IMG/VR virus record: IMGVR_UViG_3300047558_000077
Location: 62,001-126,000 of that record
Strand: one strand, 5' to 3'
DNA from: a virus
Length of the DNA stretch: 64,000 nt
How positions within the stretch are numbered: position 1 is the first letter of the stretch; every line of letters begins with the position of its first letter. Positions 1 to 63,955 of this stretch are shown in pieces. Made by a program: the position numbers and the translations under genes. The notes beneath the pieces were generated by a model, which did no database searches, was not told the origin of the DNA, and saw only the letters and a program-made list of their open reading frames with translations.

Positions 1-704
1 GCATGTGGATTGGGCTCGCCCTTCTAAATGTCTTTTATCTAATCGTCCGTATCTATGAACAGGTTTATGGCTGGCGTGCTGGTCTTGACTCGTTCGCACC
101 AGAGTTTCAGACATATTGGATGTCTATTCTTTGGACAGAAATCCCACTAGAACTTATCTCAGGTCTTGGTCTTGCAGGTTATCTTTGGAAGACTAGAACC
201 CGTGACTTCTCTCTTGTAACACCAAGGGAAGAAATGCGCCGTCTAGCGGTGTTGGTTCAGTGGTTGGTTGTTTATGCTGTTGCTATCTACTGGGGTGCAT
301 CGTTCTTCACCGAACAGGATGGTACCTGGCATATGACAGTCATTCGTGATACGGATTTCACTCCGTCCCACATCATTGAGTTCTACATGAGTTACCCAAT
401 CTACTCAATCATTGCTGTTGGTGCGTTCTTCTATGCTCGCACTCGTATCCCTTACTTTGCTCAGGGATATAGCCTAGCATTCTTGATTGTTGCTATTGGA
501 CCATTCATGATCATCCCGAACGTTGGCCTGAATGAGTGGGGCCACACCTTCTGGTTCATGGAAGAACTATTCGTTGCTCCTCTACATTGGGGCTTCGTGT
601 TCTTCGGCTGGATGGCTCTAGGTGTCTTTGGCGTTGTGCTACAGATCCTAGGTCGTGTCCACAGTCTCGTTGGACGAGATGGTGTAAGACTCCTTACCGA
701 ATAA
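1..704 (+). CDS. pmoC: Particulate methane monooxygenase subunit C, 5' end outside window
   Basis: Integral membrane subunit of the copper enzyme that oxidises methane to methanol. The visible 233 residues run colinearly with methanotroph PmoC (about 256 aa), so only some 23 N-terminal residues are missing off the window edge. Both metal sites are intact: D106, H110, H123 (in EQDGTWH and TPSHIIEFY) and N177, H181, H195 (in GLNEWGHTFW and APLHWGF). No frameshift or internal stop. Similarity is strongest to Methylocystis-type PmoC. pmoA and pmoB are not seen beside it, so the product probably joins host PmoA/PmoB. A terminator follows immediately. It could instead be amoC, but the sequence favours pmoC. 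Confidence 0.95.
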   Translation, partial: MWIGLALLNVFYLIVRIYEQVYGWRAGLDSFAPEFQTYWMSILWTEIPLELISGLGLAGYLWKTRTRDFSLVTPREEMRRLAVLVQWLVVYAVAIYWGASFFTEQDGTWHMTVIRDTDFTPSHIIEFYMSYPIYSIIAVGAFFYARTRIPYFAQGYSLAFLIVAIGPFMIIPNVGLNEWGHTFWFMEELFVAPLHWGFVFFGWMALGVFGVVLQILGRVHSLVGRDGVRLLTE

Positions 705-2668: not shown

Positions 2669-2908
2669 ATGAGGAAGTTTTTGGTTCTATTCGCACTACT
2701 ATTCAGCACAGCAGCACTAGCAGATGCACCATATGGCACATATTACAATCCGGTTCAGGATCCACCGTTCACAGGTGATTGGTCTGTTCCAGTTCATCGT
2801 GGTATGTATTGTGTTCAGGGAACTTGGCATCGTGGATGGCTACGTCCTTGGGAAGGTTCTATCGTAATCAAGCCATCTTGTGGTACTGCGATCTATCAGA
2901 TTCAGTAA
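2669..2908 (+). CDS. Small secreted protein
   Basis: 79 aa with a clear signal peptide (MRKFLVLFALLFSTAALADA). The mature part is rich in Y, W, P and G with two cysteines. The start at 2669 was chosen because it gives the signal peptide; an upstream in-frame ATG at 2627 only adds a polar extension. Role unknown. Confidence 0.65.
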   Translation: MRKFLVLFALLFSTAALADAPYGTYYNPVQDPPFTGDWSVPVHRGMYCVQGTWHRGWLRPWEGSIVIKPSCGTAIYQIQ

Positions 2909-2912
2909 CTCA

Positions 2913-3500
2913 ATGCTAGTCATCGATCATTTATTCTCAAAAGAAAATCAGGATTTGATTGAAACATCCGCCACAAGAATACCGTGGTTTTTTCAAGAGA
3001 ACACCTGCGACTTCTCATATATCAAAGGTTATCCTGAAACTATAGCTGGTGTAAAAGAAACACCGTTCTTTGTTAATATGATGGTCGATGACTTTAAAGT
3101 CCAATCAGATTACTATAAGTATTTTGCGCCGATTGTTGTGCATCTAGAAAAGCACACAGGTCGTTCATTTCGGAATAGATTGTTTCGTATGAAGGCCAAT
3201 ATGTATCTAAGACAACCCGACTATCCGGAAGGGTTCTTCCACACACCGCATGTGGATGTGTATGATGAAAAAACAGATACGACCGGTGAGGGTGAAATCT
3301 TTCTTTACTATGTTGATAAGAGTGACGGTCCGACATACATGTTCAATGAAAGATTTCCTACAAAAGATGTGACAAAGAGAGGAATGATATCACCGGAAAA
3401 AGGTAAAGGTGTTCTGTTCGATCTTCAAACACAACATGCTAGTTCTCCGCCTCGAATACATGAAAAACGGATCACGTTAAACTTCGTATTCACTAAATAA
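2913..3500 (+). CDS. 2-oxoglutarate/Fe(II)-dependent oxygenase
   Basis: 195 aa, double-stranded beta-helix oxygenase of the prolyl-hydroxylase-like kind common in aquatic T4-like phages. The iron ligands fit H113-x-D115 (TPHVDV) and H175 (TQHASS), with R186 as probable 2-oxoglutarate contact. It is a paralogue of the gene at 19894 (both carry the end pattern RITLNFVF). Substrate unknown; peptide or virion protein hydroxylation is plausible. A CTAAATA box overlaps its stop codon. Confidence 0.85.
   Translation: MLVIDHLFSKENQDLIETSATRIPWFFQENTCDFSYIKGYPETIAGVKETPFFVNMMVDDFKVQSDYYKYFAPIVVHLEKHTGRSFRNRLFRMKANMYLRQPDYPEGFFHTPHVDVYDEKTDTTGEGEIFLYYVDKSDGPTYMFNERFPTKDVTKRGMISPEKGKGVLFDLQTQHASSPPRIHEKRITLNFVFTK
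3493..3499 (+). promoter_or_regulatory. Late-promoter-like CTAAATA box
   Basis: CTAAATA across the stop codon of the oxygenase, 36 bp before the holin-like gene. Resembles the T4-type late box (TATAAATA). Confidence 0.5.
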
Positions 3501-5733: not shown

Positions 5734-8285
5734 TGAATAAATTTTATACGAATGTTGAGATATGGGGCGGCAAAATCCTATATCGTGGTGTTGAAAACGG
5801 TGTCTGTGTTCGATACAAGGTAGATTACAACCCTACCTTGTTCGTACCTTCCGATAAGCCAACCAAATACACGACAATCTATGGTGAGTATGTTGGGCCT
5901 GTAAAGCCTGGCACCATCCGTGATTGTCGTAATTTTGTTAAGCAATATGATGGTGTTGACAACTTCAAGATTTATGGTAATCAACGTTATCAATATTGCT
6001 TTATTGCCGATGAGTTTGAGGGAACCGTCGATTGGGATATTTCAAAGATTAAAATTGCTAACATCGATATCGAAGTCGGTGAACCTGACGGTGGTGGATT
6101 TCCTGAGCCAGATAAGGCCGACGGTGCGATAACTGCCATTACAATCAAGATGAACGGCTATTTCACCACTTTTGGTTGTGGTGAATATGAGAACACACGT
6201 TCTGATGTGAGATATTTTAAATGTATGGATGAGTTCGATCTCATTCGTAAGTTTCTAGGTTGGTGGCAAAGTGAGTATCCTGATATCATTACTGGATGGA
6301 ATGTCGAAGTCTTCGATATTCCTTATCTTATCAATCGTATCGTAAAACTACTAGGTGAGAGTGAAGCAAAGAAGTTGTCACCATGGAATGTTATTAACAC
6401 CAAGGTTCTGGAAATTGGTGTGAATCGTCGTGGTCAAGGATATTCTATTTTAGGTGTTGCCACACTAGATTTACTTTCACTATATAGAAGATACGCTCCT
6501 GATGGAAAATCACAAGAGTCTTATAAATTGGACAACATCGCTCATGTTGAGTTGGGCGAACGCAAACTGTCCTACGAAGAATATGGTTCTCTACACAATC
6601 TTTACAAAGAGGACTATCAAAAGTTCATCGATTATAACATCAAAGACGTTGATCTAGTTGATCGTATCGATGATAAAGGTAAGTTTATTGAACTAGCACT
6701 AACTCTATCTTATGATAACAAGTGCAACTACGAGGACGTGTTCGCACAGGTCCGCATGTGGGACGTTATTTGTTTTCACCATTTGAAATCAAAGAACATA
6801 GTTGTCCCTCCTATTGAGAAACACGAGAAGGAGGCTGCCTATGTTGGCGCATACGTTAAAGATCCTATTATTGGCTTCCATGATTGCGTGGTTAGTTTCG
6901 ACGTTAATTCAGAGTATCCGTCTGTTATTATGGGGTCCAATATCTCTCCTGAGACGATTGTTGAACCTGATTCTTATAGCGATGCTATGCGGGCTATTGT
7001 TGCCTCTGGTGTCAGTGTTGATAAACTTCTCAATCGTTCCATTGATACATCATGCCTAAAGGCAGACAATGTTTGTTTGACTGCTAACGGTCAGTTCTAT
7101 CGCCGTGATAAGCAAGGCTTCATGCCTGAAATGGTCGAGAAGATGTTCGCCGATCGTAAGGTATATAAGAAGAAGATGCTTGAGGCGCAAGCAGAGTATG
7201 AGACAGAGACCGATTCCGATAAGAGAGCGGAACTAAAAAACAAGATTGCGAGATATAACAATCTACAACTCTCTAAGAAAGTATCGCTAAACTCCTTATA
7301 TGGTGCTATGGGTTCAAAGTATTTTAGATTCTTTGACCTTCGTAATGCCACTGCCGTCACGACTACGGGTCAACTTAGCATTCGTTGGATCGAAAACGAT
7401 ATCAATAAGTATCTAAACAAACTATTGAAAACGGAGAAAGATTATGTTATTGCGGTCGATACTGACTCGGTGTATCTCAATCTTGCAGAGGTGGTTAGGA
7501 AAACTTTTAGCACACAGAATGTCGATCCAATTCGTGGAATCTCATTCATGGACAAGGTCTGCGAAACTGCTATTCAGCCAGTTATTGATAAGTCTTGCAA
7601 CCTACTTGGGGATTATACTAATGTCTATCAACAAAAGATTGTCATGAAGCGAGAGGTCTTGGCAGATAAAGCAATCTGGACTGCCAAGAAGCGTTACATT
7701 CTAAACGTCCATAACTCCGAAGGCGTGCAATACGCTAAGCCTAAGAAGAAAGTTATGGGCCTTGAAATGATCAAGAGTTCCACACCTACAGCATGTAGAG
7801 ACAAACTAAGAGAGGTTGTTGATGTTATCTTTGATGAAGACGAGGCGGCTGTCCAGTCTTTTATTCAAACTTTCCGTGGTGAATTTCAAAATCTTCCTCT
7901 GGCAGATATTGCTTTTCCTCGGGGAGTTAATGGTCTTGATAAATATAGTGATTCGAAATCTATATATGCATCCGGTTGTCCTATCCATGTTCGTGGTTCT
8001 CTCGTATATAATCATCTTTTACACATTCATAATCTTACTTCTAAGTATCCACTAATCCTGTCGGGTGAAAAGATCAAGTTCATTCATCTGAAAGAACCTA
8101 ATACAGTTCAATCAAACATCATAGCTTTTCCACAAGGTAATATACCGAAAGAATTTGACTTGCATAAGTATATAGATTATAATCTACAGTTTCAAAAGGC
8201 ATTTCTAGATCCACTTATCATCATTCTTGGTGCTATTGGCTGGAAGCCAGAACGAAGCGCAAGTTTGGAGGACTTCTTCTCATGA
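5733..8285 (+). CDS. 43: DNA polymerase, family B (T4 gp43-like)
   Basis: 850 aa replicative polymerase with proofreading. Exonuclease motifs: I D112-I-E114, II with D195 (NVEVFD), III Y301-x3-D305 (YNIKD). Polymerase motifs: A D390-V-N-S-E-Y-P-S, B KKVSLNSLYG (N520-G524), C D576-T-D578. Slightly shorter than T4 gp43 (898 aa). The ATG at 5733 overlaps the upstream TGA; the TTG three bases earlier is not needed. Works with UvsX, gp41 and gp61 elsewhere in the window. All catalytic residues intact. Confidence 0.97.
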   Translation: MNKFYTNVEIWGGKILYRGVENGVCVRYKVDYNPTLFVPSDKPTKYTTIYGEYVGPVKPGTIRDCRNFVKQYDGVDNFKIYGNQRYQYCFIADEFEGTVDWDISKIKIANIDIEVGEPDGGGFPEPDKADGAITAITIKMNGYFTTFGCGEYENTRSDVRYFKCMDEFDLIRKFLGWWQSEYPDIITGWNVEVFDIPYLINRIVKLLGESEAKKLSPWNVINTKVLEIGVNRRGQGYSILGVATLDLLSLYRRYAPDGKSQESYKLDNIAHVELGERKLSYEEYGSLHNLYKEDYQKFIDYNIKDVDLVDRIDDKGKFIELALTLSYDNKCNYEDVFAQVRMWDVICFHHLKSKNIVVPPIEKHEKEAAYVGAYVKDPIIGFHDCVVSFDVNSEYPSVIMGSNISPETIVEPDSYSDAMRAIVASGVSVDKLLNRSIDTSCLKADNVCLTANGQFYRRDKQGFMPEMVEKMFADRKVYKKKMLEAQAEYETETDSDKRAELKNKIARYNNLQLSKKVSLNSLYGAMGSKYFRFFDLRNATAVTTTGQLSIRWIENDINKYLNKLLKTEKDYVIAVDTDSVYLNLAEVVRKTFSTQNVDPIRGISFMDKVCETAIQPVIDKSCNLLGDYTNVYQQKIVMKREVLADKAIWTAKKRYILNVHNSEGVQYAKPKKKVMGLEMIKSSTPTACRDKLREVVDVIFDEDEAAVQSFIQTFRGEFQNLPLADIAFPRGVNGLDKYSDSKSIYASGCPIHVRGSLVYNHLLHIHNLTSKYPLILSGEKIKFIHLKEPNTVQSNIIAFPQGNIPKEFDLHKYIDYNLQFQKAFLDPLIIILGAIGWKPERSASLEDFFS

Positions 8286-9862
8286 GTAAACCAATTAATA
8301 AAATAGTTATCGTCGGAGGTGGTTCTGCTGGTTGGATGACAGCGGCCACGCTCATTCAAAGATTAGATAATCGTGAGATTGTTCTAATTGAAGATCCTAA
8401 TACGCCTACAGTCGGCGTCGGTGAATCCACACTTGGGTTTATCAATGAATGGATGCGTCTACTCGGCATTAAAGACACAGACTTTATGAGAGAGTGTAAT
8501 GCGACTTATAAGATGTCTATTAGCTTCACAGACTTTTATAAGAAGGGTTCAGGAACCTTTCATTATCCCTTTGGCGGTGTTGATATCACAGGAAACACAT
8601 ATGCAAAGAATGACTGGTATCTAAAGAAATTTCTGCATCCAGAAACACCAATCTCCGACTATGCGGATAATGTATATCCTATCATGTCATTGGTGAACGC
8701 TAATAGAATGACAAGTGAATCGATTTTACCTGGTTACAATTTTCACAATGATGTTGCGTTTCATTTTGATGCTGCCAAGTTTGGTGTTTGGTTGCGTGAG
8801 AAGTATGCTATTCCAAGGGGTGTTAAGTATATTCAAGGTAAAGTCAGACACATTCCAGTAAACGAAGACGGTGTAGAAAAACTAATACTTGATAGTGGTG
8901 AAGAGATCACCGCCGATTTGTATATCGATTGCACAGGTTTTAGATCAATCATTCTCGGTGAAGCGTTGCATGAACCTTTCATCTCATATCATGACATTCT
9001 ACCTAACAATTCTGCCTGGGCCGCACAAGTACCATACATTGATAAAAAGAAACAGATTGTTCCTTGGACTGATTGTCATGCAATAGAAAACGGCTGGGTA
9101 TGGAGTATTCCATTGTGGAGCCGTATGGGTATGGGCTATGTGTATTCTGACAGATACATCGATGATGCAGGTGCCTTGCAAGAGTTCAAGGATCATCTAA
9201 ACAAATATGGAATGTTAAAAGAAGATCAACATTTTCATAACATCAAATTTAGAGCCGGTATTCATAATCGTATTTGGGTGAAGAATGTTGCAGCTATTGG
9301 TTTGTCAGCGGGCTTTATCGAACCTCTAGAAAGCAATGGATTGTTTAGTGTTCATATGTTTCTTGTTAGATTGCTTCGTGCAATCGATAGAGACAAAGAT
9401 GAACATCTTGTTTCAGAATATGATCGCAATAGTTACAACTGGTCATGTCGAACAATGTTTGATGGCTTTTCACAGTTTGTTGCGTTGCATTATGCCCTAT
9501 CACACAGAACCGATACAGAGTATTGGAAAGATGTTGGTAGAAGAGACTATTGTGATGTTGATAAGTCGCTTCAAAGAGGAGTATCTAGAAACGAGTCATT
9601 CATTTCAGCTTTTGATTATAAGTATAACACTACACGATTTGGTGATGATGGCTTGAATGCTATTGCAACAGGACTAAATTACTTCTCAACAGATATGCAT
9701 TTTATCCATGCAATGAATGCATCAAATGTGAATCTTGCCGAGGAGTTTGATGTTATAACCAAACGACTAAACGCAAAGAAAGAGCTATGGGATTATATAG
9801 CTTCAAAATGTCCAACTACATACGATTTTTTAAAAGAAAGGATCTATCATGGCGAAGACTAA
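8282..9862 (+). CDS. Flavin-dependent tryptophan halogenase family protein
   Basis: 526 aa. FAD-binding G12-G-G-S-A-G-W18 (GxGxxG), the halogenase GWxWxIP signature at 271-277 (GWVWSIP), K77 at the position of the catalytic lysine of PrnA (TYKMSISF) and E347 in GFIEPLE matching the conserved glutamate. The family chlorinates or brominates tryptophan or other aromatics using FADH2; homologues occur in aquatic T4-like phages with unknown substrate. No flavin reductase gene is visible, so host FADH2 would be needed. ATGA overlap with the polymerase gene suggests co-expression with replication. Confidence 0.85.
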   Translation: MSKPINKIVIVGGGSAGWMTAATLIQRLDNREIVLIEDPNTPTVGVGESTLGFINEWMRLLGIKDTDFMRECNATYKMSISFTDFYKKGSGTFHYPFGGVDITGNTYAKNDWYLKKFLHPETPISDYADNVYPIMSLVNANRMTSESILPGYNFHNDVAFHFDAAKFGVWLREKYAIPRGVKYIQGKVRHIPVNEDGVEKLILDSGEEITADLYIDCTGFRSIILGEALHEPFISYHDILPNNSAWAAQVPYIDKKKQIVPWTDCHAIENGWVWSIPLWSRMGMGYVYSDRYIDDAGALQEFKDHLNKYGMLKEDQHFHNIKFRAGIHNRIWVKNVAAIGLSAGFIEPLESNGLFSVHMFLVRLLRAIDRDKDEHLVSEYDRNSYNWSCRTMFDGFSQFVALHYALSHRTDTEYWKDVGRRDYCDVDKSLQRGVSRNESFISAFDYKYNTTRFGDDGLNAIATGLNYFSTDMHFIHAMNASNVNLAEEFDVITKRLNAKKELWDYIASKCPTTYDFLKERIYHGED

Positions 9863-11145: not shown

Positions 11146-11500
11146 TTACGTTTTTAGAGATGACTTGTTTGATGCCAAAGAAGCCGGCTCAACAGTTCCT
11201 ATTGAGCTAAAGATTGAACCGTTTGTTGGTGTCGTATATCGATATACAACAGTTACTTTCAAGGTGGGCGAGGATGATATTCCTCGCCTACAATATGATT
11301 ACGAGATTATCAAAACAAATGATTTGTCTATGGTGACTTTACGAAAGAACCAAAAGTTCAATCACACCTTAGGACTTATACTAAATGCTATGTTGCTAGA
11401 TTTGGGAGATGCTGAAACGAATGAGATTGGAACAAATAATCCTCAAGAATCTGATACAGAAGGAAGACTTCACGAGGAAGGTTCTTCCATTCCTTCGTGA
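11129..11500 (+). CDS. Conserved protein between uvsX and gp41
   Basis: 123 aa. Body with alternating beta segments ([21 protein letters not shown]) up to about residue 93; the last 30 residues are polar and coincide with the 92-bp overlap with the helicase gene. A hypothetical gene at this place is usual in aquatic T4-like phages. Function unknown. Confidence 0.65.
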
Positions 11501-12800
11501 GGATTATTTCTCTAATCAGGAAGATCGGCTGCTTTTCAAAGAAGTTGCCGACTTCATCCTCAAGTATAATCAGCAACCAACCTTTGATGCTCTTTCTATT
11601 GAGATTGATAACATTCGTGGTGGTACCGATGATACCATCAAGAGTATTCAGGAAACTCTCAAAGAACTAAAGAAAGATGAGGAGTCAACAAACGAGCAAT
11701 GGCTTGTTGATTCCACAGAAAAGTTCTGTCAAGAGAAAGCAATCTATAACGCTATCACACAATCATTGGAGATTATGAATGGACGAGGGAAACTCTCTAA
11801 GGGCGCTATACCTTCTCTGTTGTCTGATGCTTTGGCTATATCTTTTGATCCGAATGTTGGTCACGATTATCTAGAACAAACGAATGAACGATATGAGCAT
11901 TATCACCGTGTTGAAGAACGCCTTAGATTTGACCTTGATTTCTTTAACAAGATTACAAAGAATGGAGTTCCGAGAAAAACTCTTAATGTCGTTATGGGTG
12001 GTGTCGGTGGTGGTAAATCTCTTACTCTTTGTCATTTTTCTTCTAGTTATCTTACCATGGGCAAGAATGTTCTTTATATCACACTAGAACTAGCCGAAGA
12101 AGAAGTTGCCAAGCGTATTGATGCTAATCTAATGAACATTACGTTTGATGATCTAATGGCTTTGCCGAAAGATTTGTATGATAAGAAGATTGCCAATCTA
12201 AAGCAGAAGACAAATGGTAAACTTATCATCAAAGAGTATGCCACTGCAACAGCATCAACTATTCATTTTCGTTCCCTGTTAAACGAACTAAACCTCAAGA
12301 AAGGATTCGTACCAGATGTTATCATGGTCGACTATCTCAATATTTGTGCGTCATCCCGTATCAAGCCTGGTAATGGTGTTAATAGTTATACCTACGTTAA
12401 AGCGATTGCCGAAGAACTTCGAGGTCTAGCAGTCGAGTTCAATGTGCCAATCTGGTCAGCAACACAGTTGACCCGAAGTGGTTACACATCTACCGATCCA
12501 GGCATGGAAGATACATCTGAGTCCTTTGGTCTACCAGCAACGGCAGACTTCTTCGTGGCGCTTGTCGTAACGGAACAACTCTCACAGTTGAACCAGATTA
12601 TGGTAAAGCAGTTGAAGAACCGATACAACGATCCAGGAATCAACAAAAGATTTGTTATTGGTGTTGACAAAGCACGAATGAAGTTGTATGATGTTGAATC
12701 ATCGGCACAGGACTTGGCTGATTCAGGACAGGAAGAAGTTGCTCCAAAGCCAACATTCAACAAATCTAATACTAACAAGTTCAAGGGCTTAAAAGTATGA
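11409..12800 (+). CDS. 41: Replicative DNA helicase (T4 gp41-like, DnaB family)
   Basis: 463 aa hexameric 5'-3' helicase. Walker A G197-GVGGGK-S204, Walker B DVIMVDYLNIC, later ATQLTRSGY segment with the DnaB-type sensor region. The N-terminal domain (residues 1-100) begins [12 protein letters not shown] as in gp41. The start lies 92 bp inside the upstream gene, an unusually long overlap; ATG 11421 is an alternative. Confidence 0.93.
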   Translation: MLKRMRLEQIILKNLIQKEDFTRKVLPFLREDYFSNQEDRLLFKEVADFILKYNQQPTFDALSIEIDNIRGGTDDTIKSIQETLKELKKDEESTNEQWLVDSTEKFCQEKAIYNAITQSLEIMNGRGKLSKGAIPSLLSDALAISFDPNVGHDYLEQTNERYEHYHRVEERLRFDLDFFNKITKNGVPRKTLNVVMGGVGGGKSLTLCHFSSSYLTMGKNVLYITLELAEEEVAKRIDANLMNITFDDLMALPKDLYDKKIANLKQKTNGKLIIKEYATATASTIHFRSLLNELNLKKGFVPDVIMVDYLNICASSRIKPGNGVNSYTYVKAIAEELRGLAVEFNVPIWSATQLTRSGYTSTDPGMEDTSESFGLPATADFFVALVVTEQLSQLNQIMVKQLKNRYNDPGINKRFVIGVDKARMKLYDVESSAQDLADSGQEEVAPKPTFNKSNTNKFKGLKV

Positions 12801-13036
12801 AAAAACTCTATACATATTATCCTGAGTTCAATAATAACGACGAACTTCTTTGGCTTGTGTTTGAGGAATCAACCAACAGTGTAGTCGCCGAGTTTTTCTT
12901 TGAAGATGACGCACAGGAATACGCTACCTTTCTAGACAACGGTGGTGGCTTTGCAGGATTCACTCCAAGATTTATCTTGACAAAGGTACCGAAACCAGAT
13001 ATAAATGAGGCATTCTTAGCAGAGTTTGCGGAATAG
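12797..13036 (+). CDS. Hypothetical protein, 79 aa
   Basis: Acidic protein; ATGA overlap with the helicase gene marks the end of the replication operon before the tRNA promoter. Unknown function. Confidence 0.65.
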   Translation: MKKLYTYYPEFNNNDELLWLVFEESTNSVVAEFFFEDDAQEYATFLDNGGGFAGFTPRFILTKVPKPDINEAFLAEFAE

Positions 13037-13071
13037 TTCCGAAAAAAGATAAAAAAATTCAAAAAAAGTGC

Positions 13072-13100
13072 TTGACATTCCGTTCCGGTGCCTATATACT
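13072..13100 (+). promoter_or_regulatory. Sigma70 promoter of the tRNA cluster
   Basis: TTGACA (13072-13077), 17-bp spacer, TATACT (13095-13100), 18 bp before the first tRNA. Confidence 0.85.
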
Positions 13101-13118
13101 ACTTAGACAATAAAGATT

Positions 13119-13195
13119 GGTTCCATAGCTCAACAGGATAGAGCAACCGCCTTCTAAGCGGTAGGTTGAAGGTTCGAATCCTTCTGGGACCGCCA
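13119..13195 (+). tRNA. tRNA-Arg(TCT)
   Basis: Full cloverleaf, anticodon loop CTTCTAA, canonical T-loop, encoded CCA. Reads AGA. Confidence 0.92.
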
Positions 13196-13200
13196 TTTAT

Positions 13201-13291
13201 GGGGGTGGGTGTAAGACACAAGAGGGACTTATAAACCCTTTAGCGGCCGATTACCGTTCTCGACCAGGAGCGTTACCTGGCACCCCTACCA
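13201..13291 (+). tRNA. Aberrant class II tRNA, anticodon TAT
   Basis: Acceptor GGGGGTG / CACCCCT then A and CCA; long variable arm (GCGG/CCGT). Body resembles tRNA-Leu(TAA), but the loop reads CTTATAA (TAT), the closing anticodon pair is A-A, the D-loop has lost its GG, and the T-loop is AGCGTTA. Either a tRNA with changed decoding or a decaying gene. Confidence 0.6.
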
Positions 13292-13306
13292 ACTTTGGAG
13301 TATGAC

Positions 13307-13453
13307 ATGGAAAACTTTGAACTGCTCTATCAGTGTTATCTATCTGGTCAAATGTCTGAAATGCAGTGGCAACTACATTTGAAGTGTGACGAAGGCCTAC
13401 AAGATTGGTATAAATGTAAACAGACTGCCTACTCTATAGAAGCGATAGAATAA
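13307..13453 (+). CDS. Small hypothetical protein, 48 aa
   Basis: TTGGAG precedes the ATG by 6 nt. The 3' end forms the left arm of a terminator that includes the stop codon. Four W/C-containing helical turns; no family recognised. Confidence 0.55.
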   Translation: MENFELLYQCYLSGQMSEMQWQLHLKCDEGLQDWYKCKQTAYSIEAIE

Positions 13454-13480
13454 GGGTGCGTCATTCTATCGCAGTTTTTT
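13442..13480 (+). terminator. Terminator overlapping the stop codon
   Basis: Perfect 10-bp stem GCGATAGAAT (13442-13451) / ATTCTATCGC (13463-13472), loop carrying GGGTGCGTC, then a run of six T. Confidence 0.85.
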
Positions 13481-13484
13481 GTGG

Positions 13485-13513
13485 TTGACTTCTGAATCCG
13501 TTTGGACTATATT
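13485..13513 (+). promoter_or_regulatory. Sigma70-type promoter, tandem copy 1
   Basis: TTGACT (13485-13490), 17 bp, TATATT (13508-13513). Reads into a hairpin terminator only about 45 bp further on. Confidence 0.7.
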
Positions 13514-13550
13514 ACGTGAACGGTGGGACGAAACAGAGAGACAGGAACAC

Positions 13551-13577
13551 GGTGCGACAACCTGACGCACTTTTTTC
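13551..13577 (+). terminator. Short terminator behind tandem promoter 1
   Basis: GTGCG / CGCAC hairpin (cassette-type GGTGCGACAACCTGACGCAC) followed by six T. Would release an RNA of about 50 nt. Confidence 0.6.
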
Positions 13578-13589
13578 TGAAAAAAGTTC

Positions 13590-13618
13590 TTGACTTCCTG
13601 TTTTTGATGCTATATAGT
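13590..13618 (+). promoter_or_regulatory. Sigma70-type promoter, tandem copy 2
   Basis: TTGACT (13590-13595), 17 bp, TATAGT (13613-13618). Again followed within about 60 bp by a cassette-type hairpin (GTGCGAC/GTCTCAC, 13658-13676) with a T run. Confidence 0.7.
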
Positions 13619-13697
13619 ATGCGAACGATGAAACGAAAGAGGGAAACAGGAAATCAGAGTGCGACGGAATGTCTCACTTTTTCCTAAAAAAAAGTTC

Positions 13698-13725
13698 TTG
13701 ACTTCCTGTTTGAGTCGTGTATAAT
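13698..13725 (+). promoter_or_regulatory. Sigma70-type promoter, tandem copy 3
   Basis: TTGACT (13698-13703), 16 bp, TATAAT (13720-13725). This copy drives the gene at 13755. Confidence 0.75.
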
Positions 13726-14996: not shown

Positions 14997-15171
14997 TTAC
15001 TCGTCCGAGGAGTTGGATACCTTGGGCTACCATATTACACGGGTGCGCTGTGTGGTATGGGTATAGGTGGCGGCAACCTAAACGTCCGTCTTAGCGCATC
15101 GTCTTATCCAGGCAAATCTGCCACAACGAAATAGTGGCTGGGAGATGGTAGTAACTCCCTGCGAGATTTAT
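14997..15171 (+). other. Non-coding gap in tRNA cluster with hairpins
   Basis: No ORF and no tRNA found. Visible helices: CCATA..ACAC / GTGT..TATGG (15030-15060), TAGG/CCTA (15064-15080), GGGA/TCCC near 15140-15160. May hold another structured RNA or tRNA remnants. Confidence 0.4.
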
Positions 15172-15252
15172 CTCCACGTATCCACCTTCGCTACGAACGA
15201 AGAGTAAGGTAACTGGATGCAAATGCAGGTTCGAATCCTGTCGTGGAGTCCA
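15172..15252 (+). tRNA. Aberrant tRNA-like gene without D-arm, possible Arg(ACG)
   Basis: Acceptor CTCCACG/CGTGGAG, T and CCA, and a canonical T-arm (GCAGGTTCGAATCCTGT) are intact. Hairpin CTTCG-CTACGAA-CGAAG would give anticodon ACG, but only 7 nt separate it from the acceptor, so there is no D-arm; flanks pair as ATCCA/TGGAT instead. Either a D-armless tRNA or a tRNA mimic. Confidence 0.5.
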
Positions 15253-15348
15253 GGTCGCTGGATTACTAATCGATGGTTCCTAGGCCTATCGAGGTGTGTA
15301 CCAGTAGTGGAAGCCCGTCACCACTATAAGAAAGCGTGGCTGCTATTC
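15253..15348 (+). other. Non-coding gap between tRNAs
   Basis: 96 bp with hairpin TAGTGG/CCACTA (15305-15326) and CGAT/ATCG around 15270-15290; nothing else recognisable. Confidence 0.35.
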
Positions 15349-15423
15349 GCTGGTAGGTCGGCAAGATGTCGAGGCGCTCTCATAAGGCGTTTAAGGTTGG
15401 TTTAATTCCAACTATCAGCACCA
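15349..15423 (+). tRNA. tRNA-Met(CAT), copy 1
   Basis: Acceptor GCTGGTA/TATCAGC, anticodon loop CTCATAA, T-arm GTTGGTTTAATTCCAAC, CCA. Could be Ile2 if the C34 is lysidinylated. Confidence 0.85.
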
Positions 15424-15429
15424 GTTTAT

Positions 15430-15504
15430 TGCGGTCAGGTGGTCCGGAGACCATTCTTGTCTCATAAGCAAGAGAGCCATGTTCGACTCATGGGTCCGCA
15501 TCCA
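15430..15504 (+). tRNA. tRNA-Met(CAT), copy 2
   Basis: Acceptor TGCGGTC/GTCCGCA with one T-T mismatch, anticodon loop CTCATAA, canonical T-loop, CCA. Elongator, initiator or Ile2 identity not resolved. Confidence 0.85.
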
Positions 15505-15538
15505 ATGTTGGTAAAGTGGTTCAGAGAACCGCATTTTA

Positions 15539-15564
15539 CTAAATAAGGGTAGGAGGTACCTACC
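15539..15564 (+). promoter_or_regulatory. Late box plus RBS-hiding hairpin of the HNH gene
   Basis: CTAAATA (15539-15545) is followed by hairpin GGTAGG (15548-15553) / CCTACC (15559-15564), which buries the Shine-Dalgarno AGGAGG two bases before the ATG. A late transcript would start near 15551, inside the left arm, and so escape the block. Confidence 0.6.
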
Positions 15565-15565
15565 A

Positions 15566-15883
15566 ATGGTCGCAAGAAACAAATACGGTATAAAGAAAAC
15601 TAATGAAGAGGTATTTGTAGAAAACTCTACATATCCGAGACATAGGTTAAAAGAACGGATCATAAAAGAAGAAATGATCCCGTATGTGTGCCATGAATGT
15701 GGTATGGATGACAACTGGAACGGTAAGAAAATCGTTTTACAGTTAGACCATATAAATGGTGTGAATGATGATAATAGAATGAATAACCTTCAGTTCTTGT
15801 GTCCTAATTGTCATTCACAAACTCATACATACGCAGCAAAGAATAGACATAACTCTGCGAGAAAACCAAAGAGATATGTTTGA
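15566..15883 (+). CDS. HNH homing-type endonuclease
   Basis: 105 aa. Zinc ligands CHECG and CPNCH flank the HNH core LDHINGVNDDNRMNNLQ, so the ββα-metal nuclease fold is intact. Free-standing HNH genes inside phage tRNA arrays are usually mobile elements that spread by cutting genomes lacking them. The next tRNA begins 2 bp after its stop, suggesting neat insertion. Translation is probably blocked on cluster read-through RNA by the upstream hairpin. Confidence 0.88.
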   Translation: MVARNKYGIKKTNEEVFVENSTYPRHRLKERIIKEEMIPYVCHECGMDDNWNGKKIVLQLDHINGVNDDNRMNNLQFLCPNCHSQTHTYAAKNRHNSARKPKRYV

Positions 15884-15884
15884 T

Positions 15885-15958
15885 GTTGGTGTAGTGTAAC
15901 GGTAGCACAACGGCCTCCAAACCCGTTAGTAGGGGTTCAAATCCTCTCACCTTCGCCA
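15885..15958 (+). tRNA. tRNA-Trp(CCA)
   Basis: Anticodon loop CTCCAAA, T-loop TTCAAAT, CCA. Acceptor GTTGGTG/CACCTTC has two T-T mismatches, possibly linked to HNH insertion next to it. Confidence 0.8.
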
Positions 15959-17245: not shown

Positions 17246-17473
17246 ATGATCGTCATTTCAGACAAGGCCAATAGTAAAGTAATAATTTCAGAAGAAGTCA
17301 ATAGAGAACTTAGTCAGCTTGTGATGACCACACTAAAGACAAAGTTTCCGAATATTGATGAAACAACTCTAACAGATATCATGACAACGCAGAGAGATAT
17401 TTACATCGACTTTCTAAATGAAAGATATAATACGGTAGAACAATGGAACAATGAGAAGACAATACTCTGGTAA
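17246..17473 (+). CDS. Hypothetical protein, 75 aa
   Basis: Helical protein with a 23-bp overlap with the next gene, likely one unit with the oxygenase. No family recognised. Confidence 0.65.
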   Translation: MIVISDKANSKVIISEEVNRELSQLVMTTLKTKFPNIDETTLTDIMTTQRDIYIDFLNERYNTVEQWNNEKTILW

Positions 17474-18029
17474 CATATTAAACTTATGTGATCGACTAAA
17501 AGTAAGAATATATGATTTAGTAGGTTATGATAGCAAAAACAATCCAGAAGGTTGTTTGACAGGATACACCACAGCACACTTCAATAATCCTGTAGGCCGT
17601 AGATTGGATAAGTTGCCGGAGTTTAAAGAACCTTTAGATTTTGTTTTGAATACAGCAAAAGATTATGCCGTTGAAAACGGCTTAGACAAAGATCATCTAA
17701 CGACTGTCATGTGTTGGGTAAATGTCTATCCTCCTGGAACATTCATTAGTGCCCATAAACATATAACATTCGATAATCTGTTTACGTCCGTATTTTACTT
17801 ACAGAGTAAAGAAGACTCTGGGCAATTATATGTTGCCGACGATCCTAATCCAAAGAATATAAAGCAAGGTGAAGTGTATATTTTTCCTTCCAATATAGAT
17901 CATTGGACAACACCAAATGAAAGTGTTCAGGATAGAATAGTTTTCGGATGTGACTTTGTTTACTATCATATAGACGACCAAACAGTGGATAGAATCCTAT
18001 CTAACTGGCTTGACCGAAAAAAGACTTGA
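17451..18029 (+). CDS. Putative 2OG-Fe(II) oxygenase (TIGR02466-like)
   Basis: 192 aa. H102-x-H104 (SAHKHITFDN) followed by LFTSVFYLQ, then GEVYIFPSNIDHW with H151 and R162 (DRIVFG): the pattern of phage oxygenases of the TIGR02466 type, where HxH replaces HxD. Third oxygenase of the window. Substrate unknown. Confidence 0.75.
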   Translation: MRRQYSGNILNLCDRLKVRIYDLVGYDSKNNPEGCLTGYTTAHFNNPVGRRLDKLPEFKEPLDFVLNTAKDYAVENGLDKDHLTTVMCWVNVYPPGTFISAHKHITFDNLFTSVFYLQSKEDSGQLYVADDPNPKNIKQGEVYIFPSNIDHWTTPNESVQDRIVFGCDFVYYHIDDQTVDRILSNWLDRKKT

Positions 18030-19799: not shown

Positions 19800-19874
19800 G
19801 CTTCATTCGTCTACTGGCTAGGACACCCGCCTCTCAAGCGGGAAAAAGGAGATCGATACTCCTATGAAGCACCA
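19800..19874 (+). tRNA. tRNA-Glu(CTC)
   Basis: Acceptor GCTTCAT/ATGAAGC, anticodon loop CTCTCAA, CCA. T-loop ATCGATA (A54). Confidence 0.9.
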
Positions 19875-19893
19875 AACACTAGAGAGTTATATC

Positions 19894-20502
19894 ATGGAAA
19901 TTATTAAAGACCTTCTCTCAAAAGAAAAGCAAAATGAAATTGAACATACTATGTTAAAAACTTCATTTCCGTGGTACTTCAATAGTGAAGCAACATATGA
20001 TATGTTCAATGATAATCGAACACTAAACACATCTTTCTTTGGTCATATGTTTTTCTATGGCGGTAAGATTGATTCGGAGTATTATTATCCGTTGATTTGT
20101 CAGCCGATCATCGAGGCTCTTGAACGTCACCAAGGTAGACGTTTTCAAAATCGTGTTTGGCGTATCAAAGCCAATCTCTACACGAAAGACGGATCATATC
20201 CAGAAGACTTTCATCATCCTCCACACATAGACAATTCAGAAGATAACTTCCGGGGAGAAACTTTTCTCTACTTTGTCAATGATGCTGATGGTGATACTTT
20301 TATGTTTAATGAGCATTACGACTATGTTCATAAGCGTTATGGTCCCGAAGGATTTAAAGGAAACTTTACAAATCAGCTAAGGATTCCGCCAGAAAAAGGT
20401 AAGTCAGTATTATTCCCACTGACACAATGTCATACATCATCTATCCCTAGAAAAGGTGGTCCACGCATCACATTAAACTTTGTGTTCGGTGAATATTTCT
20501 GA
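19894..20502 (+). CDS. 2-oxoglutarate/Fe(II)-dependent oxygenase
   Basis: 202 aa, paralogue of the gene at 2913. Iron ligands H111-x-D113 (PPHIDN) and H180 (QCHTSS), R191 as probable 2-oxoglutarate contact. An in-frame ATG at 19864 lies inside tRNA-Glu, so the start at 19894 is preferred. Substrate unknown. Confidence 0.82.
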   Translation: MEIIKDLLSKEKQNEIEHTMLKTSFPWYFNSEATYDMFNDNRTLNTSFFGHMFFYGGKIDSEYYYPLICQPIIEALERHQGRRFQNRVWRIKANLYTKDGSYPEDFHHPPHIDNSEDNFRGETFLYFVNDADGDTFMFNEHYDYVHKRYGPEGFKGNFTNQLRIPPEKGKSVLFPLTQCHTSSIPRKGGPRITLNFVFGEYF

Positions 20503-62488: not shown

Positions 62489-63955
62489 ATGATTATCACT
62501 CGTAACTGGATACGTGACGACATACTCATATACACCGAGAAAGCCACTGGCGGTCTTCGTGTGTATGGTAAGAAAGACATATGCGAGTTTATCAATTATT
62601 GGAAACTGAAACTACTATCACATAATGCAAAGCCTGGTGATAAATTAGGATTTACGTTTGAGAACACCGAGATTCATTCTTATGCTCTTATGTTTGCAGC
62701 ATTTGAACTTGGGTTACGTGTTGTGGTTTTACATCGACCAAGCACAGAGAAGGAATGTTTGGCACCAAAAAGCAATGCTCATTTACCTCTAGACTTCTAT
62801 GTCTATCTCACATCATACCTAAATCGTTCAACTACTGTCACGGGTGTCAATCATTATCGAAAGCATTCTAAAGTTTGCATTAGCTATGGTCCTATGGAAT
62901 GGACCGAGTTTAGTGAAGACTTTAGATCAAATGAAGAAACACCTATAACAGTCAAACCCGACGATGTTGCTTTTTGTTGTAACAGTAGCGGTACAACCGG
63001 AGATCCTAAACTCATATCATACACACACGAGTTTCTTTACAACCTATGCACACATAACTGGCAAGACTTAGGTTATAAAGACGATGATACCATTGTGCAT
63101 CTGTCTTCCCTAAATCACGGTGGAGTCATAACTTTACTATTACCGGCACTAAGAACTTGCAAGACACACTTCTTTTATAACTACATCTTTGCAGCATCAT
63201 ATGATCGTCTTCTATCATTCATAGATGTTTGTCTAGATTATAATGTGTCAAAAATATTCTTTGCAAACGGTGGGGAGCTGAATACGCTCATTGATCACTT
63301 AATAGAAACCGATAATAAACTATCCAATGTTAGTGCCTACATTCTTTCGTTTATCAGTCCTAGATGGTCAGATACTATTCGTGATCAAAGACTAAAGGAG
63401 ATTGTTAGCGTTTTTGGTTGTAGTGAGATATGTGGTCCTGTCTTTATGCCTAGACTAGACAATAGCAATGTTGATGGCTTTGATCCAAAGTTACTAGGCA
63501 AGCCAATGACAGGCTTCTATGAAACAAAGATCATTAATAACAGAATACACACGAAACTAAAAGACGGAGGAGAGTTTGTCTTTGATGATGTTGTAGAAGA
63601 TAGAGTAGAAGGCGCTTATTTCATATCAAAGAATAGACTACAGAAGATCAATGATGTGGATATCAATCCACTGGACATTATAGAGATAGTAGAAAGATAT
63701 GTATCACGGTATGAGTTTGAGTTATATGTGGACGAAATCTATAACGAGATATACATCATAACTTCCAATGCCAATCTTGATAGAGGGAAGATAAGACAAG
63801 ACATATCTGCATTCTATCTGGACAAGATAACTCTAACCGATATCATATACGAAAAGGAACTATATGATACTCGGATCACTCACAAAGCGGAAAGAGATAA
63901 ACTATCACACATAGTTGAAAGATTCCGCTTGACATTTCAGAATAACTCTGTATAA
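62489..63955 (+). CDS. AMP-forming acyl/aryl ligase (ANL superfamily)
   Basis: 488 aa. P-loop N165-SSGTTGDPK (165-174), later VFGCSEICGP (motif A5-like) and ISKNRLQKIND with the hinge region. Such adenylating enzymes make acyl-AMP/CoA or load carrier proteins, and are unusual in phages. Short C-terminal domain compared with cellular enzymes. Substrate unknown; a link to the halogenase and oxygenases is speculative. Confidence 0.8.
   Translation: MIITRNWIRDDILIYTEKATGGLRVYGKKDICEFINYWKLKLLSHNAKPGDKLGFTFENTEIHSYALMFAAFELGLRVVVLHRPSTEKECLAPKSNAHLPLDFYVYLTSYLNRSTTVTGVNHYRKHSKVCISYGPMEWTEFSEDFRSNEETPITVKPDDVAFCCNSSGTTGDPKLISYTHEFLYNLCTHNWQDLGYKDDDTIVHLSSLNHGGVITLLLPALRTCKTHFFYNYIFAASYDRLLSFIDVCLDYNVSKIFFANGGELNTLIDHLIETDNKLSNVSAYILSFISPRWSDTIRDQRLKEIVSVFGCSEICGPVFMPRLDNSNVDGFDPKLLGKPMTGFYETKIINNRIHTKLKDGGEFVFDDVVEDRVEGAYFISKNRLQKINDVDINPLDIIEIVERYVSRYEFELYVDEIYNEIYIITSNANLDRGKIRQDISAFYLDKITLTDIIYEKELYDTRITHKAERDKLSHIVERFRLTFQNNSV

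What the first reader, a model, noticed from the sequence alone, without database searches (positions are those of the whole stretch)
15539..15566. HNH gene with I-TevI-like translational switch
Hairpin GGTAGG/CCTACC hides the Shine-Dalgarno, and a late box CTAAATA is placed so that late RNA would begin within the left arm and free it. T4 I-TevI uses the same logic. The arrangement would silence the nuclease on early tRNA-cluster transcripts.
Basis: partly seen in the sequence, partly recalled or inferred. Interest (0 to 1): 0.72.

Follow-up and report, generated by a model that had tools for sequence, protein, structure and literature searches.

The report
Late-switched tRNA-cluster HNH homing nuclease
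A small selfish DNA-cutting gene sits inside a virus's transfer-RNA cluster, and an RNA hairpin seems to hide its start signal until the virus switches on a late promoter that makes RNA too short to form the hairpin; dozens of related genes show the same arrangement with unrelated hairpin sequences, so it looks selected for and not accidental.

Summary
CTAAATA behaves as this phage's late promoter: 30 forward against 3 reverse sites, some placed before T4-type portal, scaffold and tail-tube genes, and a gp55 homologue is present. The predicted RNA start (15551) removes 3 of the 6 pairs and lowers the Shine-Dalgarno opening cost from about 5.4 to 1.7 kcal/mol. For this locus alone that is not beyond chance (P 0.09-0.26). 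The support comes from relatives. Across HNH homologues that often abut a tRNA gene, late boxes just before the start codon are strongly enriched (25/60 and, in a hold-out, 30/98, against about 1% background). Shine-Dalgarno-hiding hairpins that the late RNA would lose exceed permutation nulls by 8 and 6 SD. The hairpin sequences differ, but the logic is the same. Relatives of this phage with tRNA-Met directly followed by tRNA-Trp show the empty site. The mechanism is known (I-TevI, mobE, segB, gene e), so this is a new member of a known kind. No transcript start was mapped.

The parts
15539..15545 (+). CTAAATA late-promoter box; predicted +1 at 15551
   Evidence: Aeh1 precedent PMC1524935
15548..15564 (+). 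RBS-sequestering hairpin GGTAGG-AGGTA-CCTACC
   Evidence: isolated hairpin -7.6 kcal/mol
15551..15556 (+). Shine-Dalgarno AGGAGG, half in the left arm and half in the loop
   Evidence: opening cost 5.4 (long RNA) vs 1.7 kcal/mol (late RNA)
15566..15883 (+). free-standing HNH endonuclease gene, 105 aa, directly 5' of tRNA-Trp
   Evidence: PF01844; homologues
15516..15532 (+). stem-loop GTGGTTC-AGA-GAACCGC with palindrome GTTCnnnGAAC, 6 nt before the box: possible operator, weak terminator or tRNA relic
15885..15958 (+). tRNA-Trp(CCA) immediately downstream of the insert
   Evidence: empty-site relatives
15430..15504 (+). tRNA-Met flanking the insert upstream, 96% identical in empty-site relatives L027/L029
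13698..13725 (+). nearest upstream strong sigma70-type promoter-like site on the + strand (TTGACT-16-TATAAT), presumed early promoter into the tRNA cluster

Best explanation
A free-standing HNH homing endonuclease gene has inserted between tRNA-Met and tRNA-Trp in the tRNA cluster of a T4-type phage. RNA read through from early promoters carries the hairpin 15548-15564, which closes over the Shine-Dalgarno, so little nuclease is made early. Late in infection, gp55-directed polymerase starts at about 15551 from CTAAATA. This short RNA lacks half of the left arm, cannot hold the hairpin, and is translated. Shown: the sequence elements, the insertion (relatives with the two tRNAs adjacent), the late-box geometry, and the recurrence of this layout in related genes beyond permutation nulls. 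Inferred: the exact RNA start, early read-through, the translation effect and nuclease activity.
For: CTAAATA strand bias in the record 30:3. Boxes lie before T4-type portal, scaffold and tail-tube genes, and a gp55 homologue has E 2.9e-17. The 5'-end scan shows SD opening at 5.2-6.0 kcal/mol for ends <=15548 and 1.7 for ends >=15550. Homologues with a late box 14-40 nt before the start: 25/60 vs 2/180 background windows; hold-out 30/98 vs 4/294 (Fisher 2e-15 and 4e-16). Mean SD opening cost in long RNA 6.19 vs null 3.10+-0.36, loss in late RNA 4.90 vs 1.59+-0.39; hold-out 4.74 vs 2.60+-0.39 and 3.38 vs 1.07+-0.39. In most of the 21 testable loci every pair between an upstream partner and the SD-to-start stretch is lost in the predicted late RNA. 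T4 segB gives 9.4 vs 4.5 kcal/mol by the same measure. Empty sites: L022, L027, L029. + strand early-type promoters 38 vs about 12 expected, five at the head of the cluster.
Against: For this locus alone the hairpin is within chance (P 0.09-0.26). Only 3 of 6 pairs are lost, so a late start 3 nt further upstream would keep the SD closed. Ordinary late genes also show some loss of structure (non-nuclease controls: median 2.1 vs 4.6 kcal/mol, p 4e-4), so the family effect is one of degree. A few homologues lack the switch by this measure (L156, L132, L283, L291). No close sibling of this locus was found to test covariation of this hairpin.
Confidence: 0.68

Rival explanations
1. Chance hairpin: the HNH gene has an ordinary late promoter, and the short inverted repeat around its AGGAGG has no regulatory role in this phage, even though some homologues use a switch.
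For: Random or permuted spacers give equal SD occlusion in 9-26% of trials; half of the stem would remain in late RNA.
Against: No other window ORF with a strong SD has a >=6-bp stem over it (1/33); homologues carry the same design far beyond the null in two sets.
Confidence: 0.17
2. The main early block is transcriptional: the stem-loop 15516-15532 and its T-rich tail end early transcripts before the gene, and the RBS hairpin only adds to it.
For: The terminator scan lists this stem (7 pairs, ATTTTACTAA tail); many homologues have a stem 3-10 nt before the box followed by T-rich sequence (17/55 vs 7/45 controls and 9% of shuffles).
Against: The T-tract is weak and interrupted; terminator-like hits in the region are barely above shuffles (7 vs 4.5); homologues such as L154, L186 and L126 lack the stem but keep a strong RBS hairpin.
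Confidence: 0.1
3. Late RNA starts at the base of the hairpin and keeps it, as a 5' stabilising structure or a constant brake on translation.
For: Several late boxes of this genome are followed within about 8 nt of the predicted +1 by a hairpin; with a start at 15548 the SD stays closed.
Against: The published -12 register puts +1 at 15551, and most homologues lose the whole left arm.
Confidence: 0.05

Closest known systems
T4 segB (GIY-YIG homing endonuclease in the tRNA cluster)
   Same: Free-standing homing nuclease in a tRNA cluster, immediately 5' of a tRNA gene; late box 22 nt before the ATG whose sequence takes part in an SD-hiding hairpin lost from late RNA (PMC2988022).
   Different: GIY-YIG, not HNH; different hairpin and no sequence relation; neighbour is tRNA-Arg.
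Aeromonas phage Aeh1 mobE
   Same: HNH homing nuclease with an RBS-sequestering hairpin and a late promoter (PMC2988022, PMC3014915); Aeh1 late box is CTAAATA (PMC1524935).
   Different: Lies in the nrdA region, not in a tRNA cluster; its sequence was not compared here.
T4 I-TevI (td intron)
   Same: Same logic: early and middle RNA hides the RBS, while late RNA starts inside the structure and frees it (PMC2988022).
   Different: GIY-YIG and intron-encoded; its operator overlaps the late promoter. The window gene is free-standing between tRNA genes.
T4 gene e (lysozyme), soc, 49
   Same: Early transcripts sequester the RBS; for gene e, late promoters skip the 5' arm (PMC3014915).
   Different: Not mobile elements.

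Membership tests
HNH endonuclease (Pfam PF01844) | profile match above the curated cut-off with CxxC ... DH ... N ... CxxC core | tested here: met
   21.8 bits vs 21.4; core residues invariant in 6 homologues
Free-standing homing endonuclease gene | present in some phages and absent at the same site in close relatives | tested here: met
   L022, L027, L029, L026, L030 have tRNA-Trp a few nt after the preceding tRNA or tRNA-like sequence and no insert
Free-standing homing endonuclease gene | site-specific cleavage of the empty allele and biased inheritance | not testable with these tools
   needs purified protein and crosses
I-TevI-type late translational switch | RBS closed in read-through RNA | tested here: met
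   predicted opening cost 5.4 kcal/mol; not significant for this locus alone
I-TevI-type late translational switch | late promoter placed so that late RNA lacks the 5' arm | tested here: inconclusive
   predicted +1 15551 removes 3 of 6 pairs; start not mapped
I-TevI-type late translational switch | measured translation only late | not testable with these tools
   needs infection of a host
I-TevI / SegB protein family (GIY-YIG) | GIY-YIG catalytic domain | tested here: not met
   no GIY-YIG match; only HNH passes its cut-off
I-TevI-type autorepression | operator resembling the homing site overlaps the late promoter | tested here: inconclusive
   GTTCnnnGAAC palindrome 8-10 nt before the box in 10/55 family loci, 0/45 controls; homing site unknown

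The most novel reading that the evidence does not exclude
A widespread, previously undescribed family of small HNH homing nucleases uses the 5' side of tRNA genes (mostly Trp and Ser-UGA) as its niche. It carries a portable control cassette: a GTTCnnnGAAC stem-loop shaped like a tRNA anticodon arm, then a T4 late box at fixed spacing, then an ever-changing RBS hairpin. The stem-loop would be an operator that mimics the nuclease's tRNA homing site, a second invention of I-TevI-style autorepression.
Probability: 0.15. Interest if true: 0.75.

Novelty: new member of a known kind. Interest (0 to 1): 0.52.

Why it matters
The late-only RNA switch has been described for a handful of T4-type nucleases (I-TevI to III, segB, mobE). 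Finding it again and again in a separate HNH lineage, with hairpins that share no sequence but keep one geometry, points to strong selection on when a homing nuclease is made. It gives dozens of natural replicates for testing why. It also ties another nuclease type to phage tRNA clusters, where SegB was recently shown to drive tRNA amplification against host defence (PMC13096335).

Tried and rejected
Full tRNA pseudogene at 15503-15552: no Rfam match even at E 5; a 5' tRNA half is only weakly supported in one homologue (L106, 16.4 bits, E 0.16). Late genes from relatives' early regions as clean controls: several proved to be nucleases themselves and were removed before the final comparison. 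TATAAATA as the late box of this genome: only two in the window, below expectation. Covariation test on the window hairpin: no close sibling in the collections searched. The Vibrio D479 homologue as a query found no further relatives. My first script on the late boxes used the wrong sequence for the window and was redone.

Full report
WHAT IS THERE. The window is bases 62001-126000 of a 172,364-base virus record. It is a large T4-type phage: T4-like portal, scaffold, tail-tube and terminase proteins and a gp55 homologue lie in the same record, and there are 24 ARAGORN tRNAs in the window. The ORF (15566-15883, 105 aa) is an intact HNH protein between tRNA-Met (15430-15504) and tRNA-Trp (15885-15958).

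IS IT AN INSERTION. Relatives identified by the gp41-like helicase gene carry the same tRNA order. In L022, L027 and L029 tRNA-Met is followed after 4 nt by tRNA-Trp with no HNH gene, and in L026 and L030 the preceding tRNA-like sequence runs straight into tRNA-Trp. In L027 and L029 the tRNA-Met flank is 96% identical to the window, while tRNA-Trp and beyond is about 72%. The insert is bounded by imperfect copies of the tRNA-Trp start (ATGTTGGTAAAGTG upstream, ATGTTGGTGTAGTG downstream). This is the picture of a homing gene at a tRNA, arriving with its own tRNA copy; that last step is inference.

IS CTAAATA A LATE PROMOTER. Its count in the window is unremarkable. In the whole record it is 30 forward to 3 reverse, while the reversed pattern gives 9 and 17. 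Boxes stand 16-27 nt before genes of the late class: portal gp20, T4-type scaffold and a gp19-like tail tube. CTAAATA starting at -12 is the published late box of Aeh1 (PMC1524935). With that register +1 is 15551.

DOES THE GEOMETRY WORK. Folding with different 5' ends gives an SD-opening cost of 5.2-6.0 kcal/mol for ends up to 15548, 2.5 at 15549 and 1.7 from 15550 on. Early read-through is plausible: sigma70-type sites with at least 10 of 12 matches number 38 on the + strand against about 12 expected, five of them at 12664-13698 and none then until 18026.

IS IT MORE THAN CHANCE. For the locus alone, no or barely: P 0.09-0.16 for occlusion with random or permuted spacers, 0.16-0.21 for the long-versus-late difference, 0.17 and 0.26 in a second permutation. 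Only one of 33 strong-SD ORFs in the window has such a stem, which is suggestive but was counted after the fact.

THE FAMILY. Homologues were fetched from IMG/VR and GenBank phages. Starts were chosen by SD score without regard to late boxes. In 60 distinct loci, 25 have ATAAATA or CTAAATA 14-40 nt before the start, against 2 of 180 background windows. Of the 60, 37 lie within -60 to +20 nt of a downstream tRNA, mainly Trp-CCA (13) and Ser-UGA (12). In the 21 testable loci the mean SD-opening cost is 6.19 in long RNA against a null of 3.10 (sd 0.36), and the loss in late RNA is 4.90 against 1.59 (sd 0.39); none of 200 permutations came near. In most of these loci every pair formed between an upstream partner and the SD-to-start stretch is lost in late RNA. 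Examples with unrelated sequences: L106 AATACTCC/GGAGTATT; L154 TTGAACCTT/AAGAGGTTCAA with the box in the loop; L186 (Vibrio phage D479) CTCCTACTGCTG/CAGCAGTAGGAG with TATAAATA in the loop; L103 with the box itself as left arm. A hold-out set of 98 further loci, same criteria, repeats the result: box 30/98 against 4/294; cost 4.74 against 2.60 (sd 0.39); loss 3.38 against 1.07 (sd 0.39) in 20 testable loci. T4 segB scores 9.4 and 4.5 kcal/mol by the same measure. Ordinary late-box genes without nuclease domains show a smaller effect (median loss 2.1 vs 4.6; p 4e-4).

AN EXTRA ELEMENT. In the window and nine other family loci a palindrome GTTCnnnGAAC, or a close variant, lies 8-10 nt before the late box; none of 45 control promoters has it. 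It forms a stem shaped like a tRNA anticodon arm (18 of 55 family loci against 2 of 45 controls). The motif was seen first and tested after; the hold-out part (7 of 30) is weaker than the discovery part (11 of 25). It may be an operator near the late promoter, as in I-TevI (PMC2988022), a weak terminator, or a remnant of a tRNA.

COMPARISON WITH THE KNOWN. The logic is that of I-TevI, I-TevII, I-TevIII, mobE, segB and gene e (PMC2988022; PMC3014915). The protein is HNH like mobE; the site is a tRNA cluster like segB, whose association with phage tRNAs was recently surveyed (PMC13096335). It is not a member of the GIY-YIG families. In the papers searched I found no description of this HNH lineage, its tRNA-abutting niche or its family-wide switch; the library holds open-licence papers only.

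VERDICT. Observation confirmed. The mechanism is known in kind and unproven here until RNA 5' ends are mapped.

Noticed in passing
window 15516-15532 and equivalents in L102, L106, L107, L109, L113, L117, L131, L145, L299: Palindrome GTTCnnnGAAC (or close variant) 8-10 nt upstream of the late box in 10 of 55 HNH family loci and 0 of 45 control promoters; operator, terminator or tRNA relic is undecided.
   Followed up: partly
L001-L013, L102-L186, L193-L410: HNH homologues very often end within -60 to +20 nt of a downstream tRNA gene, the ORF's 3' end frequently overlapping the tRNA 5' end; Trp-CCA, Ser-UGA and Leu-UAG dominate.
   Followed up: partly
window 3493, 20834, 23001, 61576 (record positions 65493, 82834, 85001, 123576) and record positions 11228, 55977, 61869: Several late boxes of this phage are followed close to the predicted +1 by a strong hairpin that does not cover the SD, as if late mRNAs carried 5' hairpins.
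   Followed up: no
window 3-704: AmoC/PmoC subunit (PF04896, E 9e-103), as in the freshwater phages of PMC7674155, which suggests a methanotroph or ammonia-oxidiser host.
   Followed up: no
window 8282-9862 and 62489-63955: Tryptophan halogenase (PF04820) and an AMP-binding enzyme (PF00501) in a phage genome.
   Followed up: no
window 2880-3500, 17451-18029, 19864-20502: Three 2OG-Fe(II) oxygenase-like genes, two of them within the tRNA cluster.
   Followed up: no
L164 and L167 upstream of the HNH start: A strong terminator-like hairpin encloses CTAAATA in its loop just before the HNH gene; probably not a late promoter there.
   Followed up: no
window 14997-15429: Stretches that look like tRNA genes (CCA ends, T-arms) but are not called by ARAGORN or Rfam; possibly unusual or decayed tRNAs.
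   Followed up: no
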